Translations under genes and position numbers: made by a program
Source: Methanobacteriota archaeon
GTDB lineage: Archaea; Thermoplasmatota; Thermoplasmata; Methanomassiliicoccales; UBA472
DNA length: 34,884 nt
Direction: 5' to 3'
Assembly: GCA_021372315.1 (NCBI GenBank)
Contig: JAJFUT010000028.1
Coordinates: 1-34,884 of the forward strand
Shown here: one piece after another, positions 19,568-31,168 of the stretch
Layout of the letters: every line of letters begins with the position of its first letter
Position numbering within the stretch: position 1 is the stretch's first letter
Notes under the pieces: model-generated
What the model saw: only the letters and a program-made list of their open reading frames with translations
What the model was told of the DNA's origin: nothing
Databases searched by the model: none

Positions 19568-19585
19568 CATGGCTTGGGGGCCATG
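19568..19585 (+). promoter_or_regulatory. Hairpin that would mask the start codon of the next gene
   Basis: CATGGC (19568-19573) and GCCATG (19580-19585) are perfect inverted repeats around TTGGGG. The downstream arm contains the ATG at 19583. If transcribed, the stem could hide that start codon. Function is inferred from position. Confidence 0.35.
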
Positions 19586-19963
19586 ACCGGTGTGCTTTTC
19601 TTTGACGCGGGCAGGGATCTATTGGATAATCATCAATCAGCGCAAGCTATGCTCTGCGAGTCAAGTTGTCATGAACTTGAACCAAGGCTTGAGCTGTACT
19701 CACACAGACCGATCAAGGGGCCCGATCAGCAGTCATCGGGATATCTGGCCGCAACGCGAGATCAGTTCATCTTCGGTGCGGTCGCGACGTCGAGGGTCCT
19801 ATGCAGGTGCGGGGCGGTCGCAGAATTGGACCGGTCCGTTATGAGGACGAAGAGGGACCTCGGCAAGGCGGTCGAGTGCCGGAGGTGCCGAAACGACCGC
19901 ATCGCCCGTGAGAAGGAAGAGCTCGACGCCGAATTTTTCGGCCTTCAGGAAAACAATGAATGA
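19583..19963 (+). CDS. Hypothetical small zinc-ribbon protein
   Basis: About 126 residues; not recognised. The first half is without motifs. The second half has a cysteine arrangement VLCRCGAVAE and VECRRCRNDR, a CxC...CxxC pattern about 25 residues apart. It is followed by a charged helix, resembling a zinc-ribbon with basic flank. The 3' half has codon use like neighbouring genes, and a hairpin (ATGGCC/GGCCAT, then TTCCTTAATT) follows the stop, which supports a real gene. The start is uncertain: ATG 19583 lies in a hairpin and lacks a clear Shine-Dalgarno, TTG 19574 would add three residues, and a later ATG at 19649-19651 is possible. Nucleic-acid binding is a guess. Confidence 0.55.
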   Translation: MTGVLFFDAGRDLLDNHQSAQAMLCESSCHELEPRLELYSHRPIKGPDQQSSGYLAATRDQFIFGAVATSRVLCRCGAVAELDRSVMRTKRDLGKAVECRRCRNDRIAREKEELDAEFFGLQENNE

Positions 19964-19994: not shown

Positions 19995-20002
19995 TTTATA
20001 TA
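19995..20002 (+). promoter_or_regulatory. TATA box for the G3E GTPase operon
   Basis: TTTATATA lies 38-45 bases upstream of ATG 20040. A leader of about 15 bases would carry GGTGA (20031-20035) as Shine-Dalgarno. Confidence 0.5.
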
Positions 20003-20039
20003 TGCCGCTAAATAGCAGCGCATCACCACTGGTGAACCA

Positions 20040-20633
20040 ATGGACATGATGGTAGTTTCGGGATTCCTGGGTTCGGGCAAGACGACGATGATCCTATCCA
20101 CCGTTGGGAGGGTCATCGAGACCACGAAGAAGAAGGTGGTCATCATCGTCAACGATTTTGGCGACATCGGCATCGATGGCAAGTTGATGGAGAAGTACGG
20201 GCTGTCGGTGACTGAGATGCCAAGCGGCTGCATCTGCTGCACGCTCGGTTCCGATTTCCTCGAGACCGTAAGGACGGTATCCGACAAGTTCTCGCCGGAC
20301 CTGATCATCGTCGAGCCGACCGGCATCGCGGACCCGGCCAATATCATCGACACGATGAAGCTCTACAGGGGACCAATCGGTGTCATCAGGACGTTCGTGG
20401 TCGCCGATGCGGTCAGGTTCCCGCTCATCATGAAGGCGCTAGGCAAGCCGTTGAAGAACCAGATCAATGCGGCAGACGTCATTCTGATCAACAAGATCGA
20501 CGAAGCCCCGGCCGCGGCCGTCGATGAGGTTAGGGCGAACCTCGATTCTCTGGGGTTCAAGAAGAAGGTCATAGCTGTCTCAGCGACCGCCGGTACGAAC
20601 CTCGACGAGGTCGTCCAAGCGATGGTGATGTGA
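20040..20633 (+). CDS. G3E-family GTPase, CobW-like, without C-terminal domain
   Basis: 197 residues. Walker A GFLGSGKTT is at 8-16, the EPTG motif at 92-95, and NKID (151-154) gives guanine specificity. The metal-binding CxCC motif typical of CobW/YjiA proteins is GCICC, with C64, C66 and C67. HypB and UreG lack this motif, so HypB is rejected. CobW proteins are usually 300-400 residues with a second domain; this one stops right after the GTPase domain. The family delivers Zn, Co or other metals to target proteins. The next gene starts 4 bases downstream and may encode the missing partner or the client. ATG 20040 follows GGTGA; ATG 20046 or 20049 are alternatives. Confidence 0.85.
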   Translation: MDMMVVSGFLGSGKTTMILSTVGRVIETTKKKVVIIVNDFGDIGIDGKLMEKYGLSVTEMPSGCICCTLGSDFLETVRTVSDKFSPDLIIVEPTGIADPANIIDTMKLYRGPIGVIRTFVVADAVRFPLIMKALGKPLKNQINAADVILINKIDEAPAAAVDEVRANLDSLGFKKKVIAVSATAGTNLDEVVQAMVM

Positions 20634-20637
20634 AGTG

Positions 20638-21066
20638 ATGGCCGAGGACTTCTCCGCATACGCCGCCAAGGTGGCCGTCGCTTTCGCCAGCGAAAGATCG
20701 CCGGAGGAGATGAGATCGTTGATCGGAGAGCTCCTTCACAAGGTGGCGATCGACTGCGTCGAGGAGGGCACGCGGCTCATCGGGCACATCAAATGCATCG
20801 CGGAGATCGAGCCAGAGAAGTTCGTGACTTGCAGCGTCGTCTCGCACGACGCCAAGCCAAGATGCGCCGGGAGCTTTGAGCGGCCATCGAGGTCCGTGGA
20901 GCTCGTCATCAACGTCCTCCAATACGGTCTGGGCAAGGATGTTCTAGAAAAGATCGTCGAGAAGGAGTCCTTGAGAGGTTTCGGTCCCGACGCGAAGGTC
21001 ACGATCGAGGACCTTTCGAAGAAGGACGACATCTGCGAGAAGCCCAGGCTGATAGCCATCGGCTGA
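20638..21066 (+). CDS. Unrecognised protein coupled to the G3E GTPase
   Basis: 142 residues (143 from GTG 20635); family not recognised. A helical N-terminal third (AAKVAVAFASERSPEEMRSLIGELLHK has this character) leads to a mixed region with potential metal ligands: C near 40, H/C in GHIKC, C and H in VTCSVVSHD, and C in KPRCAG. It ends in a charged segment with one more Cys. It does not resemble the CobW C-terminal domain. It is translationally coupled to the GTPase (4-base gap) and ends where topA ends, the stops abutting as TGATCA. Client or cofactor of the GTPase is an inference from coupling alone. Confidence 0.72.
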   Translation: MAEDFSAYAAKVAVAFASERSPEEMRSLIGELLHKVAIDCVEEGTRLIGHIKCIAEIEPEKFVTCSVVSHDAKPRCAGSFERPSRSVELVINVLQYGLGKDVLEKIVEKESLRGFGPDAKVTIEDLSKKDDICEKPRLIAIG

Positions 21067-23565
21067 TCAGGCCGGATCGGCGGTCTTCTTGACAACCTTC
21101 TTGGTCGTCGCCTTCTTCGCTGGAGCTTTCTTCGCCACCGTCTTTTTGACCGTGGTCTTTGCGGGGGCCTTCTTCTTCACCGGAGCTTTCTTCACTGGCT
21201 TGGTCTCGGCCTCGCCGGACTTCGCTGCCTTTTTCACGGCCTTCTTCTTCGCCGGAGCTTTATTAGCGGTCCCGCTCGCCGAAGATTTCTTCTCAGCCTT
21301 CGCCGCCTTGGCCTTCTGGTTGTCTGGGCAGTCCATGTTAGGGCAGAACTTCCAGGCACCCTTCCCCTTCATGCTGAACATGGGGGCCTTGCAGCTCGGA
21401 CAGAGGTCGCCCGTCGAGAATATCGCGCCATACTGCGGTAGAGGGTACGTCCTCTTGCATTCCGGGTAGCCAGAGCATCCGAGGAACCTCTTTCCGGCCC
21501 TCGAGAAGAGCACCTTGAGGTCCTTTCCGCATTCGGGGCACTTGCCGACGACGTCCATTCCTTTGTTCGATTCGCATTCCGGGTCTATGCAGATGATCCT
21601 TAGAGGGTTCCCGCGCCTGATGACCTTGATCATCGGCATCTTGCACACCTCGCAGACCTCCTGGGTAGGTTGGACGAGCGCTCCGGACGGCTTCCTGTAC
21701 GTCCTCTGGCAGTTGGGATAGTTCATGCAACCGATGAACTCCGTCCCCTTCTTCGTCCTGATGACCCTCAGGTCGCCTCCGCAATCGGGGCACTTGCCCA
21801 GATTATGCTGCTCGGCGAGGGCCGATCGGATCTCGTCCCCTATCTGCTTCTTGTTCATCTCCATCGCGTCGAGGACGTCCGAGAGCATGTCCTGCGACTC
21901 CTCGACGATCTCTCCGATCGTCGCCTTGCCGTTGGCGATGTCGTCCATGTCCTGTTCGAGATGGGAGGTCATCTTGCTCTGTGTGATCGTGTTGGCGTGC
22001 TTCTCCAGTGCCTCGATGACGGCGATGCCGCCCTCGGTCGGAACGAGATCGTTCCCGACCGCGTACTTCCTGTCGTAGAGCTTCTGGATGATCTCATGCC
22101 TGGTACTCTTGGTGCCAAGTCCGAGCCTTTCCATCTCCTGAAGGAGCGTTCCCTGGGAGTAACGGGCCGGAGGCCTCGTCTCCTTCTTCTCGAGGTTGGT
22201 CCTCTTGAGCGTGACGGTCTCGTCGACCTTGAGATCGGGGACGATCACCTCGTTGACCCTGATGTAATGGTAATACTTGCGCCATCCCGGTTCCAGGATG
22301 CGGTAGCCCTTGACATCGAAGGGCTCTCCGGCGACCTTTATCACGGCGTCGCGCGATTCGGACTTCGCCGGAGGCGCGACCGTTGCCATGAACCTCCTGA
22401 CGATCAGCTCGTAGACCGTCCACTTGTCCCCCTTGAGCTGCTTCTTGGTCGCAGCCTCCGTCGGATAGATCGGCGGATGGTCGGTCGTCTCGACCCTGCC
22501 CCTGGATGCGTGAAGCTGCGGCTGCTTGAGCAGTTCCTCCGCCTCCTCCTTGAGGTCAGATTCCTTGAGCTTCTCAAGGATGAACTTCAGCGAGAGCGAG
22601 CGCGGATAGACGGTGTTGTCCGTCCTAGGATATGATATGAACCCTGATGTGTAAAGGTCCTCGGCGATCTTCATCGCCGCGCTGGCGCTGATCCCCAGGC
22701 GGTTGGCCTCGGCCAGCAACATCGTCGTGTTGAACGGCGGAATGGGGTATTCTTCCTTCGTCTTGATCTCGTAGGTCGCGACGACCGCGGTCTTCTCGTT
22801 GGAGACCTTGGCATGGACGCCATTTGCGGCGTCCTCCTCCCAGAACGGATTTCCTTGGTGGGTCCCGCTGAAGTCCTCTCCCTTGTTGAACCCTGCAGTG
22901 ATGTTCCAATAAGGCTTCGGGACGAATGTCTTTATCTCTCTGTCCCTGTCGACCACAAGGCTAAGGGTAGGGCTCTGCACCCTTCCGACGGACAGGAAGT
23001 TGTTGCCCATCTGCCCTGATGCCAATGATATGAACCTTGTAAGTGACGCTCCCCATGCGAGGTCGATGACCTGTCTGCATTCGGCCGACTCCGCAAGCTT
23101 GTGGTCCGGCAGCGTCAGTTCGGAGAACGCCCTCTCTATCTCGATCTTGGTGAACGCGGAGAACTTCGCACGTCTGACATCCTTCATGTCAAAGTCCAGG
23201 AGCTTGACGGTCTCCAGACCGATGAGCTCTCCTTCGCGGTCGAAGTCGGTCGCGATTATGATCTCGTGGACCTGTTTCGAGAGGTCCCTCAGTGCATCGA
23301 TGATGTTGTTGGCAGTGATCTTCTTCTCTGGCTCGACGTACACTAGCGTCTTGGGATCGACGCTGTGCCAATCGTTGTATTCATCAGAATAGTCGAGCTC
23401 TATCACGTGCCCTCTCAGGCCAGCAACGTAGTACGTGTCGCCGCCCCTTTCGAACTCGAAGGTTTGAACTCCGTGCAGGCGATTACGCCTCATCGTGCCG
23501 CCAGATAGGATGAAGGCGATCCTGGCGGCCGCGTCGGACTTCTCCGAAATAATGAGACTCTTCAT
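21067..23565 (-). CDS. topA: DNA topoisomerase I (type IA) with four zinc motifs and Lys/Ala-rich tail
   Basis: 832 residues. The TOPRIM domain has DFDREGE at 107-113. The active-site tyrosine is Y312 in FISYPRTDNT. QVIDLAWGASLTR and LSVGRVQSPTL are conserved core motifs. After the core come four Cys4 zinc motifs (about 600-748): CPDCGGDL...CMNYPNC, CEVCKMP...CIDPEC, CPECGKDL...CSGYPEC, and CPSCKAPM...CPNMDC. The last 84 residues are almost all Lys, Ala, Pro, Thr and Val with KAPAKK/VKKT repeats, like a histone H1 tail. It relaxes negatively supercoiled DNA. A TATA-like box sits 24-33 bases upstream of the ATG, suggesting a leaderless mRNA. Reverse gyrase is excluded because there is no helicase domain. 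Confidence 0.95.
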   Translation of the reverse strand: MKSLIISEKSDAAARIAFILSGGTMRRNRLHGVQTFEFERGGDTYYVAGLRGHVIELDYSDEYNDWHSVDPKTLVYVEPEKKITANNIIDALRDLSKQVHEIIIATDFDREGELIGLETVKLLDFDMKDVRRAKFSAFTKIEIERAFSELTLPDHKLAESAECRQVIDLAWGASLTRFISLASGQMGNNFLSVGRVQSPTLSLVVDRDREIKTFVPKPYWNITAGFNKGEDFSGTHQGNPFWEEDAANGVHAKVSNEKTAVVATYEIKTKEEYPIPPFNTTMLLAEANRLGISASAAMKIAEDLYTSGFISYPRTDNTVYPRSLSLKFILEKLKESDLKEEAEELLKQPQLHASRGRVETTDHPPIYPTEAATKKQLKGDKWTVYELIVRRFMATVAPPAKSESRDAVIKVAGEPFDVKGYRILEPGWRKYYHYIRVNEVIVPDLKVDETVTLKRTNLEKKETRPPARYSQGTLLQEMERLGLGTKSTRHEIIQKLYDRKYAVGNDLVPTEGGIAVIEALEKHANTITQSKMTSHLEQDMDDIANGKATIGEIVEESQDMLSDVLDAMEMNKKQIGDEIRSALAEQHNLGKCPDCGGDLRVIRTKKGTEFIGCMNYPNCQRTYRKPSGALVQPTQEVCEVCKMPMIKVIRRGNPLRIICIDPECESNKGMDVVGKCPECGKDLKVLFSRAGKRFLGCSGYPECKRTYPLPQYGAIFSTGDLCPSCKAPMFSMKGKGAWKFCPNMDCPDNQKAKAAKAEKKSSASGTANKAPAKKKAVKKAAKSGEAETKPVKKAPVKKKAPAKTTVKKTVAKKAPAKKATTKKVVKKTADPA

Positions 23566-23608: not shown

Positions 23609-24082
23609 TCAGTGATGGTGGTGATGATGTGCTCCCTCGTGCTCGGTCACTTTGCCATCATGGTGATGCTCCGTGAACTCTCCAGACAGCATCACAGGAA
23701 CGCCGTTCTGGACCCCCCTGACGCTCCCCAGCTCATCGGTCAGCGCCATTATCTCCCTGACCTTGCCCGACACGATCAGAACCTCGAGGCACCTTTCAAG
23801 GTCCATATGGACGTGCACTGATGAGGAAATCAGGTGATGGTGGTTGTGCTGGATGTCCATGAGCTTGTCCTTCACATCCCCTTTGTTGTGATTGTAAAGC
23901 AAGGTGATCGTTCCGCATACGGCGGCCTCAGCATCCTCCACGGTGTTGTGCGTCAGGGCATCCCTGATGAGGTCCCTGAACGCCTCGGACCTGGTCTTGT
24001 AGCCCTTCGACTCGATCATCTCATCGTACATCTGGAGGAGGTCAGGTTCTATTGACACCCCGATACGCGTCACGTTGTCCAT
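23609..24082 (-). CDS. nikR: Nickel-responsive regulator NikR with natural C-terminal His6
   Basis: 157 residues. The N-terminal ribbon-helix-helix DNA-binding domain is RIGVSIEPDLLQMYDEMI with helix RSEAFRDLIRD. The ACT-like nickel-binding domain has H79, H90, H92 and C98; spacings of 11, 2 and 6 match the square-planar Ni site of E. coli NikR (H76, H87, H89, C95). After the family end comes an extra tail EHHHDGKVTEHEGAHHHHHH ending in six histidines, which could buffer or sense metal. NikR represses nickel import when Ni is plentiful. The Ni-dependent hydrogenase maturation genes hypA and hypD lie 3 kb away. Confidence 0.95.
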   Translation of the reverse strand: MDNVTRIGVSIEPDLLQMYDEMIESKGYKTRSEAFRDLIRDALTHNTVEDAEAAVCGTITLLYNHNKGDVKDKLMDIQHNHHHLISSSVHVHMDLERCLEVLIVSGKVREIMALTDELGSVRGVQNGVPVMLSGEFTEHHHDGKVTEHEGAHHHHHH

Positions 24083-27281: not shown

Positions 27282-27297
27282 GACATTTTGCGATGTC
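27282..27297 (+). promoter_or_regulatory. Inverted repeat abutting the hypA TATA box (possible operator)
   Basis: GACAT (27282-27286) and ATGTC (27293-27297) flank a 6-base spacer and touch the TATA box at 27298. That position is suited to block TBP/TFB binding. NikR is an obvious candidate binder given the neighbourhood, but the half-sites do not match a NikR consensus known to me. Confidence 0.3.
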
Positions 27298-27307
27298 TAA
27301 TATATAT
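27298..27307 (+). promoter_or_regulatory. TATA box of hypA-hypD
   Basis: TAATATATAT lies 22-31 bases upstream of ATG 27329, leaderless spacing. It rules against the in-frame ATG at 27293, which lies upstream of the box. Confidence 0.6.
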
Positions 27308-27328
27308 CAGCCCACGTTCGGTGTTCGA

Positions 27329-27703
27329 ATGCACGAAGTATCGGTCATGTCCAGCATACTCGAGAGCGTCAGGAACGAACTCGATTCCCACACGTTCGAC
27401 AAGGTCGAGGAGCTAGTACTTGTCGTCGGGGAGCTGACGTACCTCGGAAAGGACCAGCTGGAGTTCGCATACGAGATACTCACGAGGGGGACGGTGCTGG
27501 AGGGTTCCAAGCTCGTCATCGAGGACGAGGCCGTCGAGGTCAGGTGCGATTCGTGCGGTTACAAGGGTCCGGCGGAATATCTGTCGGACGAATCATTTCA
27601 TACCAACATCCCGAAGCTGACATGTCCCAAGTGCGGCCTGAACGTGCAGGTCCTCAAGGGGAAGAGCTGCAGGGTCACGTCCGTCAAGGTGGTGAACGAT
27701 TAA
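27329..27703 (+). CDS. hypA: Hydrogenase maturation nickel chaperone HypA
   Basis: 124 residues. It begins MHEVSVMSSIL; the N-terminal Met-His-Glu is the conserved nickel site, which fixes the start at 27329. The zinc domain has C73/C76 (RCDSCGYKG) and C99/C102 (TCPKCGLN). HypA inserts Ni into [NiFe]-hydrogenase together with HypB. Its stop TAA overlaps the first base of the hypD ATG. HypB is not in the window. Confidence 0.95.
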   Translation: MHEVSVMSSILESVRNELDSHTFDKVEELVLVVGELTYLGKDQLEFAYEILTRGTVLEGSKLVIEDEAVEVRCDSCGYKGPAEYLSDESFHTNIPKLTCPKCGLNVQVLKGKSCRVTSVKVVND

Positions 27704-28776
27704 TGTTCAGGTACAGGGAAGAGGCGACGGCCAAGAAGATCATCGAATCGCTCAGGGCGATGGATCTGAAAGATATCAGCATCATGCACGTCTGTGGGAC
27801 GCACCAGGACACCTTGGTCAAGTTCGGCATCGAGGCAATGCTCAAGGACGTCGGTATCAGGATCAGGCAGGGACCTGGATGCCCCGTCTGCGTCACGACG
27901 ACCAAAGAGGTCGTCGAAGCGATAACGCTGGCCAAGAGCGGGGTCACGATCACGGTGTTCGGCGATATGCTCACTGTCCCGACCCCGATCGGCTCGCTCG
28001 CGGACGCCAAGGCAGAGGGTGCTGACGTCAGGGTCGTGTACTCGTCCACGGACGCCATCAAGGTGGCGAAGGATGCCGAGAAGGTCGTCTTCATGGCCAT
28101 AGGCTTCGAGACGACGAGCCCTACGACGGCCGCGGTCCTGCTGGACGACCCACCTGAGAACTTCAGCGTAATGAGCTGCCACAGGATACTCCCGCCGGCG
28201 TTGGACGCGCTGTTCCACATGGGCGAGGTCAAGATCGACGGGCTCATACAGCCCGGCCACGTGGCCACGATCATCGGCCTCAGGCCCTTCGATCGATTCT
28301 CCAAGGACCTGAAGGTCCCGCAGGTCGTCGGCGGATTCGAGCCCCTGGACGTCATGGTCACGGTCTATATGATCGCCAAGCAGCTCGTCGAGGGAAGGGC
28401 CGAGGTCGAGAACGAGTATTCGAGGGTCGTGAGGCCGGAGGGCAATCCGATCGCGATGAGGATGCTCGAGGACGTGTTCCATCCGGTGGACCGCAACTGG
28501 AGGGGGTTCCCCGTCATTCCGGGCGGCACGTTGGAGCTTAGGCCCGAGTTCGAAGCTCACAACGCGCGCAAGGTCTACGAGGAAATCATCGCCAAGGCGC
28601 CGGTCGTCAGGGAGGACATGGGCGGCTGCAGGTGCGGAGAGATGCTGCGGGGCATAATCGAATCGAAGGACTGCCCCGCGTTCGGAAAGAGCTGCACGCC
28701 CAAGCGCCCGATGGGCCCGTGCATGGTCAGCCGCGAGGGCGGGTGCAACATCAGCTATCGCTACCGCCAAGAGTGA
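27703..28776 (+). CDS. hypD: Hydrogenase maturation protein HypD
   Basis: 357 residues. HypD is the Fe-S scaffold on which, with HypC, the Fe(CN)2CO unit of [NiFe]-hydrogenases is assembled. Seen: HVCGTHQ with C31, GPGCPVC with C60 and C63 (the conserved thiol site), GFETTSPTTA, LIQPGHVATIIG, and the C-terminal cysteine-rich [4Fe-4S] region (CRCGEML, DCPAFGKSC, GPCMVSREGGC). ATG 27703 overlaps the hypA stop by one base. A longer in-frame reading back to 27544 lies within hypA in another frame and is not used. Confidence 0.96.
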   Translation: MFRYREEATAKKIIESLRAMDLKDISIMHVCGTHQDTLVKFGIEAMLKDVGIRIRQGPGCPVCVTTTKEVVEAITLAKSGVTITVFGDMLTVPTPIGSLADAKAEGADVRVVYSSTDAIKVAKDAEKVVFMAIGFETTSPTTAAVLLDDPPENFSVMSCHRILPPALDALFHMGEVKIDGLIQPGHVATIIGLRPFDRFSKDLKVPQVVGGFEPLDVMVTVYMIAKQLVEGRAEVENEYSRVVRPEGNPIAMRMLEDVFHPVDRNWRGFPVIPGGTLELRPEFEAHNARKVYEEIIAKAPVVREDMGGCRCGEMLRGIIESKDCPAFGKSCTPKRPMGPCMVSREGGCNISYRYRQE

Positions 28777-28887: not shown

Positions 28888-30024
28888 TTGACCGAGACGA
28901 CTAACGGATCGAACGTGAACGGTGAAAGGCCCCCTGCCATGAACGGCACGGCGGCCAGCGAGGTCGATCAATATAAGGCTGGGAAGAAGGTCATCTGCGT
29001 CTCCCTTCCCCATCTGAGCGCGAAGCCGGTCAAGACGATGGGCTCGACGCCGGAGGAGTTCCTTCCGACGGTGCAGAAGGCAGCGCTATCGTGGGTCAAC
29101 TATGCCGCGCCAGACCTAGAGGTCGACGGGGCGAAGGTCGCCGCGATGTTCGGGTTCAGCGAATCGATGATATCCGGACTTCTCAAGGGGTACTACGCCA
29201 GCTTCGAGGACAGGGAGGTCGAGCTGGGCATCATGATCCCGGCGGTCAGGGTCACGGGTTCCAAGCTCAACGTGTTCCCCCTCATCGTCCTGGTCAAGAA
29301 GAACCTCATACTCACGATTCATAGCATGGAGGTCGTCCGTCTGGTACAGTTCTCCAGGTACGCCGACTCCTATCTCACGAAGCTCCCCGACGTCATGCCT
29401 CAGGAGGACAAGCTCACGATGATGCTCGTCCGCATCATCGACGAGAACAATACGAGGAACTTCGAGCAGCTGAGGGGGATCGAAGAGCTATCGGATAGCT
29501 TATCGGAGACGCTGGTCGATCCCACTACCCCGAGGGGGGAGATCGGGAAGCAGATCTACGGTGTGAAGCACTCGCTGATCACGTACCTGAACACGCTCTG
29601 GAGGACGCTCGACGTGATCAACTCCCTGCGTTACGGTGATGCTGACGTCATCACGGACAACACGAAGGTCTTGGCCAAGGTCGGGCTCCTGGCCGACGAC
29701 CTGAACAGGCAGATCGAGCTCAGCGAGCACATGTCCGAGGTGCTCGCCTCCGGACTAGAGGTGCTCCAGTCCCTCTACAACAACCAGCTGCAGGTACTCA
29801 ATAACAGGATGTCGCTCACGATGACGTGGCTTACCATCCTTGGTACGGCCGTGCTCGTGCCCAACACGCTGGCCACGATATTCGGCTTTGTGTTCGGGCT
29901 CGACGTCCTGGAGATCATCTGGACGATGTCCGTCATAACGATGTCGACCATCGCCGCGACCGCGTTGGCATGGTGGTGGGTCAAGAAGAGGGTCAAGCTG
30001 CCGAAGAAGGCGGACGAGGCATAA
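28888..30024 (+). CDS. CorA-like divalent-cation channel homologue lacking the GMN motif (copy 1)
   Basis: 378 residues. An acidic/mixed cytoplasmic domain (about 30-230) leads to a long helix (about 235-305) and two C-terminal TM helices, the CorA/MIT topology. Where CorA has YGMNF after TM1, this protein reads PNTLATIFGFVFGL, so the GMN selectivity loop is missing. TM2 ends in WWWVKKRVKLPKK, positive-inside. It may transport a different cation or have a non-transport role. The start is TTG 28888, with CGAGGG 8 bases ahead and a TATA-like CTATTTAT at 28836-28843. Followed after 7 bases by a paralogue. Confidence 0.8.
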   Translation: MTETTNGSNVNGERPPAMNGTAASEVDQYKAGKKVICVSLPHLSAKPVKTMGSTPEEFLPTVQKAALSWVNYAAPDLEVDGAKVAAMFGFSESMISGLLKGYYASFEDREVELGIMIPAVRVTGSKLNVFPLIVLVKKNLILTIHSMEVVRLVQFSRYADSYLTKLPDVMPQEDKLTMMLVRIIDENNTRNFEQLRGIEELSDSLSETLVDPTTPRGEIGKQIYGVKHSLITYLNTLWRTLDVINSLRYGDADVITDNTKVLAKVGLLADDLNRQIELSEHMSEVLASGLEVLQSLYNNQLQVLNNRMSLTMTWLTILGTAVLVPNTLATIFGFVFGLDVLEIIWTMSVITMSTIAATALAWWWVKKRVKLPKKADEA

Positions 30025-30031
30025 CGACCGA

Positions 30032-31168
30032 GTGGATTCCATGCAAGAGACCAGAGGTCCGAACGGAGATGAGGCGTTCCGCGGCCCTGGCCATGAAGAC
30101 CTTCCCAAGTTCGTATGCGTGACCATCCCTCCCGCCCCGGCCAAGGTCGCGAAGGTCACCTCGAAGGACGCCGAGGACCTGACCGGCATCGCGAAGGAGG
30201 ACATTCTGACCTGGATCGATTATGTCGCCGATGATTTCGACCGTGAGGCATTGATCATCGCCAGGAAGTTCGGTTTCTCTGAGCGCATGGCCAAGAAGCT
30301 CGTCGAGGACTCCTACGAGGCTTACGAGGACCTTGACAGCGAGATGGGAATGGTCATGCCGGCCATCCAGATCAAGGATGTCGAGGTGGACGTCAAGCCG
30401 ATAATCATCTTGGTCAAGAAGAACCTCATCATAACGGTACACGACCGTTCGGTGACGAGGCTCGTTCAGTTCTCCAGGTACGCGGATGGCTGGATGTCGA
30501 AGTTGCCGGTCATGATGCCGACGGTCGACAAGCTCACTCTCGTCCTGGCGAGGATCATCGGAGTGAACAACGAACGCAACTTCGAGCAGCTCCGCCAGAT
30601 AGAGGACAGGGCGGACGATATCAGCGAGGCCTTGCTCGACCCGACCATGCACTACATGGAGACGGGGAGGTACATCTACGAGGTCAAGCACGGCCTGATC
30701 AACTACCTCACCTCCTTGTGGCGCTGCCTGGACCTGCTGAACCAGCTGAGGTATGGGGACGCCGAGCTCATATCGGACAATCAGAAGGTGCTTCAGAACA
30801 TCTCCAATCTGGCGACGAACGTCAACAAGCACATCAGCCTGACGGAGCACATGTCGGAGGTGCTGGTCTCGGGCACGACGATGCTCCAGACGCTTCACAA
30901 CAATCAGCTGCTCATCATCAACAACAGGCTCATATTCATCATGACGTGGATGACGATAATCGGCACGATGGTGCTCGTCCCGAACACGATCGCGACGGTC
31001 ATAGGCTACATGTACACGGTCCCCGAGGAGCACTTCGTCTGGACGATGGCCGTCATCATCGGAGCGACGGGGGTCTGCACATTCCTGGTCTATTATTGGA
31101 TATATTCGCACATGCAGCTGGCCGAGACACCGGAAAAGGTCAAGGGAACGTCTCTGCCTGGCAGATGA
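30032..31168 (+). CDS. CorA-like divalent-cation channel homologue lacking the GMN motif (copy 2)
   Basis: 378 residues, the same length as copy 1 and clearly a tandem duplicate: shared LVKKNLI, RLVQFSRYAD, RNFEQLR, LRYGDA, EHMSEVL and NNQL. The TM1-loop reads VPNTIATVIGYMYTVPEEHF, so GMN is again replaced. The acidic loop EEHF after it differs from copy 1, suggesting divergence of the pore mouth. Seven bases separate the genes, so co-expression and possible hetero-oligomers are likely. The start is GTG 30032 or ATG 30041; neither has a strong Shine-Dalgarno. Confidence 0.8.
   Translation: MDSMQETRGPNGDEAFRGPGHEDLPKFVCVTIPPAPAKVAKVTSKDAEDLTGIAKEDILTWIDYVADDFDREALIIARKFGFSERMAKKLVEDSYEAYEDLDSEMGMVMPAIQIKDVEVDVKPIIILVKKNLIITVHDRSVTRLVQFSRYADGWMSKLPVMMPTVDKLTLVLARIIGVNNERNFEQLRQIEDRADDISEALLDPTMHYMETGRYIYEVKHGLINYLTSLWRCLDLLNQLRYGDAELISDNQKVLQNISNLATNVNKHISLTEHMSEVLVSGTTMLQTLHNNQLLIINNRLIFIMTWMTIIGTMVLVPNTIATVIGYMYTVPEEHFVWTMAVIIGATGVCTFLVYYWIYSHMQLAETPEKVKGTSLPGR

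What the first reader, a model, noticed from the sequence alone, without database searches (positions are those of the whole stretch)
20040..21066. Truncated CobW-like GTPase coupled to an unrecognised Cys/His-containing protein
The G3E GTPase ends right after its GTPase domain, keeps the CxCC metal site, and is followed after 4 bases by a protein of unknown family with possible metal ligands (GHIKC, TCSVVSHD, KPRC). Separate GTPase and partner genes suggest a two-protein metallochaperone or enzyme-activation system. NikR and hyp genes are within 8 kb, so the metal could be nickel, cobalt or zinc.
Basis: partly seen in the sequence, partly recalled or inferred. Interest (0 to 1): 0.62.

Follow-up and report, generated by a model that had tools for sequence, protein, structure and literature searches.

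The report
Two-gene CobW-type metal-delivery GTPase
In a little-studied order of methane-producing archaea, a protein switch thought to hand metals to enzymes is encoded as two neighbouring genes instead of one, and sister copies of the pair sit beside the enzymes that start methane production from methanol.

Summary
In detail: a 197-aa G3E (CobW-type) GTPase with GCICC, then after 4 bases (counting from the ATG) a 143-aa protein with no Pfam, NCBIfam or PDB relative. The GTPase is not truncated: its model covers the whole G domain of E. coli YjiA and stops at YjiA residue 197 of 318. The partner is the missing C-terminal part as its own gene: its profile matches the C-terminal domain of one-gene GTPases of the same genomes and of bacterial arsinothricin clusters (hhalign P = 1.3e-9, 111 columns; best column shuffle 0.05, in a run without the bacterial rows). 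77 of 78 distinct partners follow such a GTPase directly. Three clades of pairs have their own places: A (the window) beside topA, NikR and hypA/hypD; B beside a corrinoid protein and an MtaA-like enzyme; C before RamA at methanol-methyltransferase loci. 36 of 78 partners end in His/Cys-rich tails (the window's does not). Best reading: a split COG0523 metallochaperone with clade-specific clients; the metal is unknown. The link of archaeal COG0523 genes to corrinoid methyltransferases is in print (Haas 2009); I found no description of the split. Verdict: a new variant of a known kind.

The parts
20040..20633 (+). G3E / COG0523-type GTPase, complete G domain only (197 aa)
   Evidence: PF02492 5.2e-39, 2-178/180; AF2 model pLDDT 83 aligns 1-197 to YjiA 4-197 of 318, Z 16.8
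20229..20240 (+). C-I-C-C putative metal site of the GTPase (residues 64-67)
   Evidence: sequence; C-x-C-C in 76 of 77 paired GTPases, one R-I-C-C
20635..21066 (+). partner: separately encoded C-terminal domain of a G3E GTPase (143 aa; GTG 20635 or ATG 20638)
   Evidence: hhalign to C-terminal domain of fused relatives P 4.8e-8 / 1.3e-9; no Pfam/NCBIfam hit
20782..20793 (+). G-H-I-K motif of the partner (residues 50-53), Gly50, His51 and Lys53 invariant in the family
   Evidence: 77 of 77 pairs; counterpart A-H-V-K / G-H-I-K in the fused proteins
19995..20004 (+). TATA-like box 36-45 nt before the GTPase ATG (TTTATATATG)
   Evidence: sequence; similar A+T stretches at this distance in most clade-A upstream regions by eye; not tested statistically
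19574..19963 (+). small conserved neighbour with CxCG ... ECxxCRN (core about 19736-19960), function unknown, perhaps not part of the system
   Evidence: found in 14 of 15 clade-A stretches; CxCG and ECxxC in all 14 aligned; no Pfam family
21067..23565 (-). topoisomerase I-like gene, convergent with the pair (synteny marker)
   Evidence: 15 of 15 clade-A stretches; family named from the sequence (TopA-like with zinc ribbons), not from a family scan
23609..24082 (-). NikR-like nickel regulator with His-rich tail
   Evidence: PF08753 2.7e-26; 13 of 15 clade-A stretches
27293..27703 (+). HypA (nickel chaperone), same conserved block
   Evidence: PF01155 4.9e-27; in 9 of 15 clade-A stretches, several of which end before this point
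27544..28776 (+). HypD (ORF start uncertain, overlaps HypA; Pfam match starts about 27730)
   Evidence: PF01924 1.3e-127; 8 of 15 clade-A stretches

Best explanation
The two genes encode one COG0523-type (CobW-like) metallochaperone in two pieces. The first protein is the complete GTP-binding domain with the CxCC metal site in its switch region; the second is the C-terminal domain that one-gene relatives carry in the same chain, here a separate subunit marked by the invariant G-H-x-K motif. Shown by sequence analysis: the complete G domain, the homology of the partner to the C-terminal domain of one-gene GTPases, the almost strict pairing, and three clades of pairs each tied to its own chromosomal context. 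Inferred: the two proteins form a complex; GTP binding lets CxCC take up a divalent metal; the partner chooses the client and, where it has a His/Cys-rich tail, holds metal; GTP hydrolysis releases the metal into the client. For clade C the likely client is the methanol methyltransferase system (MtaB zinc site, MtaC corrinoid or RamA); for clade B a related MtaC/MtaA-like system; for the window's clade A the client is unknown. Its neighbours (NikR, HypA, HypD) make nickel my first guess (about 0.4), zinc second (0.35), cobalt third (0.25).
For: Complete G domain. Partner is homologous to the C domain of fused proteins: hhalign P 4.8e-8, 110 columns, collinear, 1.3e-9 with bacterial fused proteins added and 1e-6 with bacterial ones alone; controls: best of 100 column shuffles 0.053, best of 36 unrelated local families 0.003. 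Pairing: 77 of 78, 26 of 30 in the other direction. Correlated divergence r 0.91 over 77 pairs, within groups 0.74-0.98. Contexts do not mix: A topA 15/15, NikR 13/15; B MtaA-like 6/9, MtaC-like 5/9; C RamA 12/17, MtaB 10/17; no MtaB, MtaC or MtaA in A, no topA or NikR in B or C. His/Cys tails 36/78 against 18/521 neighbouring ORFs. PF07683 absent from own genome and 20 relatives. Haas 2009 reports COG0523 genes beside mtaA, mtaB, mtaC and ramM in other methanogens (passages).
Against: No biochemistry and no predicted complex. The window's own partner has no His-rich tail. 4 of 30 GTPase-only genes have no partner (3 of them beside RamA) and one partner has no GTPase (L097), so the partner is not always needed. 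In clade A no metalloenzyme gene is directly adjacent; NikR and hyp lie in a long conserved block that also holds enolase and other housekeeping genes, so synteny alone may explain them. One clade-A stretch has a RamA-like hit (L066). The partner's AF2 model is of middling confidence (pLDDT 67).
Confidence: 0.66

Rival explanations
1. A MeaB-like cofactor-gating GTPase: the pair does not carry metal ions but uses GTP to load, protect or re-activate the corrinoid cofactor of methyltransferase proteins together with RamA.
For: Clade C lies directly before RamA in many loci and clade B behind a corrinoid protein; three partner-less GTPases of clade C also touch RamA; the G-domain model is close to MeaB as well (Z 14.8).
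Against: Clade A, which holds the window, has no corrinoid or methyltransferase gene in 15 stretches apart from one RamA-like hit; CxCC in 76 of 77 GTPases and His/Cys-rich tails in 36 of 78 partners point to metal ions.
Confidence: 0.17
2. For clade A only: a nickel-insertion pair for [NiFe]-hydrogenase or another nickel protein, working with HypA under control of NikR.
For: NikR in 13 of 15 and HypA in 9 of 15 clade-A stretches; the G-domain fold is shared with HypB and UreG.
Against: The gene order is one long conserved block with housekeeping genes; the own genome holds a separate HypB-like gene (G000:C68, PF02492 63.8 bits; called HypB-like from its size and place in the list, not tested); NCBIfam hypB score 38.6 against a cut-off of 121.2.
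Confidence: 0.25
3. The partner is the client (a metal-receiving protein), not a subunit of the chaperone.
For: Separate gene; His, Cys and tails could receive metal.
Against: It is homologous to a domain that is fused to the same kind of GTPase in the same genomes and in bacteria; it co-occurs with the GTPase in three different contexts.
Confidence: 0.08
4. An artefact: a one-gene GTPase broken by a frameshift or misassembly in this MAG.
For: Close packing of the two ORFs in different frames.
Against: The same two-ORF layout in 77 distinct pairs from many genomes and assemblies, including single-contig ones such as G136.
Confidence: 0.01

Closest known systems
COG0523 GTPases (CobW, YjiA, ZigA/YciC, Nha3)
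   Same: Same G domain, Walker motifs and CxCC; whole model aligns to YjiA 4-197
   Different: YjiA and most members carry a C-terminal domain in the same chain; here it is a separate gene and of a kind that Pfam CobW_C does not recognise
COG0523 'subfamily 13' of archaea beside corrinoid methyltransferases (Haas et al. 2009, PMC2770081)
   Same: Same gene context for clades B and C (mtaB, mtaC, mtaA-like, RamA)
   Different: The passages read do not mention a separately encoded C-terminal partner; membership in subfamily 13 was not tested; the window's clade A has another context
Fused G3E GTPases with an A-H-V-K / G-H-I-K C-terminal domain (own genome C79; bacterial arsinothricin clusters)
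   Same: Partner profile matches their C-terminal domain, P 1.3e-9
   Different: One gene instead of two; G domains of the archaeal ones form a separate clade (support 100); the last Cys of the motif varies there (GCFCC, GCFCS, GCFCT)
UreG with UreE; HypB with HypA (two-protein nickel delivery)
   Same: Small GTPase plus separate metal-handling protein, His-rich tails
   Different: Not members: UreG TIGR00101 E 0.022, 14.6 bits against 204.2; HypB 38.6 against 121.2; partner unrelated in sequence to anything in Pfam
NF041053 CobW-related selenoprotein
   Same: Full-length match to a 195-aa GTPase-only model, 1-195
   Different: 89.3 bits against a cut-off of 180; Cys, no Sec

Membership tests
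COG0523 / G3E GTPase (G domain) | CobW/HypB/UreG nucleotide-binding domain over its whole length | tested here: met
   PF02492 134.1 bits against cut-off 20.7, positions 2-178 of 180
COG0523 / G3E GTPase (G domain) | CxCC metal motif (Haas 2009; review PMC9164220, passages) | tested here: met
   GCICC in the window; C-x-C-C in 76 of 77 paired GTPases
COG0523 / G3E GTPase (G domain) | Walker B glutamate and NKxD | tested here: met
   IVEPTG and INKID in the window protein; E92, K152 invariant and D154 nearly so in A3
Classical two-domain COG0523 protein (CobW_C, PF07683) | CobW_C domain in the same chain | tested here: not met
   Chain ends after the G domain; PF07683 in 0 of 21 genomes, control 7 of 14
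Classical two-domain COG0523 protein (CobW_C, PF07683) | partner itself is a CobW_C domain by profile | tested here: inconclusive
   hhalign P 0.012 with 9 CobW_C sequences and 0.026 with 16 (lowest of 200 shuffles 0.027); YjiA at ranks 13, 20 and 27 of Foldseek, among unrelated ferredoxin-like folds
C-terminal domain of fused A-H-V-K/G-H-I-K GTPases | profile homology over most of the domain | tested here: met
   P 1.3e-9, 111 columns; controls
UreG | NCBIfam TIGR00101 cut-off | tested here: not met
   14.6 bits against 204.2
HypB | NCBIfam TIGR00073 cut-off | tested here: not met
   38.6 bits against 121.2
CobW (TIGR02475) / ZigA (NF038288) / CobW_rel_Se (NF041053) | equivalog cut-offs | tested here: not met
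   92.6/332.1, 93.4/600, 89.3/180 bits
Metallochaperone | GTP-dependent binding and transfer of a metal to a client | not testable with these tools
   needs purified proteins
COG0523 subfamily 13 (Haas 2009) | place in the published COG0523 tree | not tested
   sequences of that tree were not at hand

The most novel reading that the evidence does not exclude
Methanomassiliicoccales have turned the CobW-type chaperone into a kit of dedicated GTPase-adaptor pairs, one for each client system: a separately encoded, fast-diverging adaptor with a metal-storing His/Cys tail addresses the GTPase to its client, and the clade-C pair is an unrecognised component, next to RamA, for assembling or activating the methanol methyltransferase (MtaB zinc site / MtaC corrinoid) on which methane formation in this order depends, while the window's pair serves a nickel or zinc client of general metabolism.
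Probability: 0.33. Interest if true: 0.7.

Novelty: new variant of a known kind. Interest (0 to 1): 0.52.

Why it matters
The C-terminal domain of COG0523 proteins is held to choose the client (reviewed in PMC9164220, passages) and is hard to study in one chain. Here nature has made it a separate, exchangeable subunit, with three clades of pairs in defined contexts, so client choice can be tested by swapping partners. If clade C serves MtaB, MtaC or RamA, it adds a missing step to methanol-dependent methanogenesis of gut and wetland archaea. It also gives a domain that Pfam does not know a set of relatives, including 'GTP-binding proteins' of bacterial arsinothricin clusters.

Tried and rejected
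CobW_C identity of the partner: suggested by topology of the AF2 model and by weak Foldseek ranks of YjiA, but profile comparison stays at P 0.012 to 0.026, hardly below shuffles, and the fused C domain gives 0.16; not claimed. VIA-align's top 50 rows for the partner are generic ferredoxin-like folds, best Z 8.8 to a designed protein; YjiA is not among those 50 rows, which excludes nothing. A search of IMG/VR with the partner profile gave no relative; tblastn of three partners against plasmids gave none. Outside the order none of the other genomes drawn from the phylum had the partner (43 of 389 with a match, all same order) or the fused protein (16 of 194, all same order). Other phyla could not be sampled with the genome tools as I used them, so Methanosarcina was not examined. 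A palindrome TCACCACTGGTGA at 20023-20035 looked like an operator but is not kept in relatives, and matches of that pattern with up to 2 mismatches are expected by chance (mean 1.44). A frameshift artefact is ruled out by relatives. Papers: 10 searches showed no description of the split pair; the main review of the family (PMC8360895) is not held, so 'not in print' is only as good as these searches.

Dropped rows and limits of counts: de-duplicates partners by core sequence and leaves out L003 and the bacterial loci; neighbouring ORFs in its background are greedy ORF calls and may include false genes. In one search, 3 of 19 CobW-type proteins (L164, L166, L168) were dropped for lack of the RxKG pattern used, so 16 were used although the script label says 19. 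In one search about half of the clade-A rows were left out to thin the tree. The stretches differ in length (3.9 to 34.9 kb), so misses there are partly truncation; 41 stretches of clades A, B and C were examined (15, 9, 17), L097 (lone partner) not among them. Correlated divergence does not correct for shared phylogeny. The clade labels come from simple N-terminal patterns plus the tree, with 6 rows re-labelled by hand.

Full report
WHAT IS THERE. The window is contig C61 of a 1.75-Mb archaeal genome; its nearest named relatives are MAGs of Methanomassiliicoccales. A TATA-like stretch lies at 19995-20004, so the pair probably has its own promoter (sequence; inference).

THE GTPASE IS COMPLETE, NOT TRUNCATED. 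It matches Pfam cobW PF02492 with 134 bits over 2-178 of 180 positions, carries GCICC, IVEPTG and INKID, and its AF2 model (pLDDT 83, made with two relatives) aligns from residue 1 to 197 with YjiA 4-197 of 318 (Z 16.8, 2.9 A, 184 residues; HypB, UreG and MeaB follow at Z 14.8-15.8). So it ends where the G domain of YjiA ends. It falls below every NCBIfam equivalog cut-off listed (CobW, ZigA, HypB, UreG, CobW-related selenoprotein).

THE SECOND PROTEIN IS A FAMILY. Neither it nor ten relatives match any Pfam family credibly and no PDB sequence is related. Within the order, 77 of 147 genomes hold homologues at E<=0.01. With a profile, 43 of 389 genomes drawn from the phylum match, all of the same order. 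The own genome has three such pairs: C61 (window), C16 and C127. Of 78 distinct partners in the stretches that I held, 77 lie directly downstream of a GTPase on the same strand; the exception is L097 8287-8775. In the other direction, in 12 genomes, 26 of 30 GTPase-only loci have the partner; the four without are three genes beside RamA (L156, L157, L161) and one in L158. Distances between GTPases and between their partners correlate with r 0.91 over 77 pairs (1000 label permutations at most 0.12) and 0.74-0.98 within groups; shared phylogeny is not removed from this figure.

WHAT THE SECOND PROTEIN IS. The same genomes also encode longer G3E GTPases of 355-373 aa (own genome: a tandem at C79). 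Their C-terminal part has no Pfam model. A profile of 73 partner sequences aligns to the C-terminal part of 15 such proteins with hhalign probability 94.8 and P 4.8e-8 over 110 columns, collinear, with G-H-I-K facing A-H-V-K. 100 column shuffles gave P no lower than 0.053, the reversed profile 0.074, and 36 unrelated gene families from the same loci no lower than 0.003. When bacterial one-gene GTPases of the same build turned up among the plasmid hits (Pantoea, Enterobacter, Priestia, Alicyclobacillus, Leptolinea; five of six next to arsinothricin or arsenic genes), adding them raised the match to P 1.3e-9 over 111 columns, and the bacterial proteins alone gave 1e-6. So the partner is the separately encoded form of a C-terminal domain that elsewhere is fused to the same kind of GTPase. 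Whether this domain is itself a distant CobW_C (PF07683) is open: P 0.012 and 0.026 in two tests, near the best shuffles; the AF2 model of the partner (pLDDT 67, strand-helix-four strands-helix-strand) puts YjiA at ranks 13, 20 and 27 of Foldseek with TM 0.35, among unrelated ferredoxin-like folds. CobW_C is absent from the own genome and 20 relatives (0 of 21; it rings in 7 of 14 control genomes). A tree of G domains separates the pairs, the fused archaeal proteins (support 100) and the bacterial CobW proteins (support 87).

CONSERVED RESIDUES. Across 77 pairs Gly50, His51 and Lys53 of the partner never change; Ser67 is kept in clade A (40 of 40) and mostly B (15 of 17), and is mostly Asn in C (16 of 20). 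36 of 78 partners have six or more His or Cys in the last 40 residues, against 18 of 521 neighbouring ORFs; some tails in clade C are very long (for example L084, L090, L101). The window's partner has no such tail. The GTPases keep C-x-C-C in 76 of 77 (one R-I-C-C, seen in L024).

THREE CLADES, THREE ADDRESSES. Clade A (the window) lies in a conserved block: topA in 15 of 15 stretches, NikR in 13, a small CxCG...ECxxCRN protein in 14, enolase in 13, HypA in 9 and HypD in 8, several stretches ending before that point. Clade B (own C16) has a corrinoid protein in 5 of 9 and an MtaA-like URO-D protein in 6 of 9, with a zinc-ribbon protein and a hydantoinase_A protein in 6 of 9 each. Clade C (own C127) has RamA in 12 of 17, MtaB in 10 and MtaC in 8; the order GTPase-partner-RamA is direct in L063, L078-L082, L092, L093, L100 and L101. 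Identities rest on NCBIfam scores over cut-off for RamA (731 bits, cut-off 500) and MtaB (723, cut-off 720), and on domain hits for the others. Clade-specific genes do not cross over, except one RamA-like hit in a clade-A stretch (L066).

MECHANISM. From the known behaviour of G3E GTPases (UreG, HypB, MeaB, CobW; review passages, and established knowledge), the most likely cycle is: GTP-bound G domain and partner form a complex, the CxCC site takes up a divalent metal, the partner docks on the client, hydrolysis releases the metal. Shown here: domain identity, pairing, clades, contexts. Inferred: complex, metal, client, cycle. For clade C the zinc of MtaB is the simplest client, since zinc is the usual metal of characterised COG0523 proteins (recalled) and MtaB and MtaA are described as zinc-dependent in Haas 2009 (passage); a MeaB-like role on the corrinoid with RamA is the main rival. 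For clade A, NikR and hyp genes make nickel a fair guess, but the block also holds housekeeping genes, so this is weak.

WHAT IS KNOWN. Haas and co-workers (PMC2770081; passages, part 1 of section 5) already found archaeal COG0523 genes beside mtaA, mtaB, mtaC and ramM, and state that most COG0523 proteins have a variable C-terminal domain and that the small UreG works with separate partners. Nothing that I read describes a separately encoded C-terminal domain. Ten text searches found no paper on the split pair; the 2021 family review was not available.

VERDICT. The finding is real and better than stated: a split COG0523-type GTPase in several copies with separate addresses in one archaeal order. 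It is a new variant of a known kind. The metal and client of the window's own copy remain unknown.

Noticed in passing
window 23609-24082 (-): NikR-like protein with a long His-rich tail (EHHHDGKVTEHEGAHHHHHH); of 521 neighbouring ORFs it has the highest His+Cys count in the last 40 residues (10), and NikR homologues in L064, L070 and L004 have such tails too.
   Followed up: partly
window 19574-19963 (+): Small protein with CxCG ... ECxxCRNxRI directly upstream of the pair, present in 14 of 15 clade-A stretches, no Pfam family; looks like a zinc-finger protein.
   Followed up: partly
L084:7501-8307, L090:7115-7894, L101:7467-8129: Partners of clade C with very long His/Cys-rich stretches after the domain.
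   Followed up: no
L168, L171, L172, L174, L175: Fused G3E GTPases with the G-H-I-K/A-H-L-K C-terminal domain lie next to arsinothricin or arsenic genes (arsM, ArsN1, ArsR) on bacterial plasmids; role not described in anything I read.
   Followed up: partly
L142 3709-6628 (own genome C79), L147: Tandem of two fused G3E GTPases with a Cys-containing HTH-like protein nearby and an Lrp/AsnC-like gene next door, in some genomes near glutamate-synthase-like genes (names read from sequence).
   Followed up: no
L062, L072-L075: Clade-B surroundings hold a zinc-ribbon-like protein and a Hydantoinase_A/MutL-like ATPase, perhaps another activation factor for the corrinoid system.
   Followed up: no
L024 905-3030: Tandem GTPase-partner-GTPase-partner, one pair of clade A (its GTPase has RICC instead of CICC) and one of clade C.
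   Followed up: no
L156, L157, L161: GTPases of clade C without a partner, directly beside RamA.
   Followed up: no
L097 8287-8775: The only partner without a GTPase next to it.
   Followed up: no
window 28888-31168 (+): Two CorA-like divalent-metal transporter genes in tandem behind hypA/hypD.
   Followed up: no
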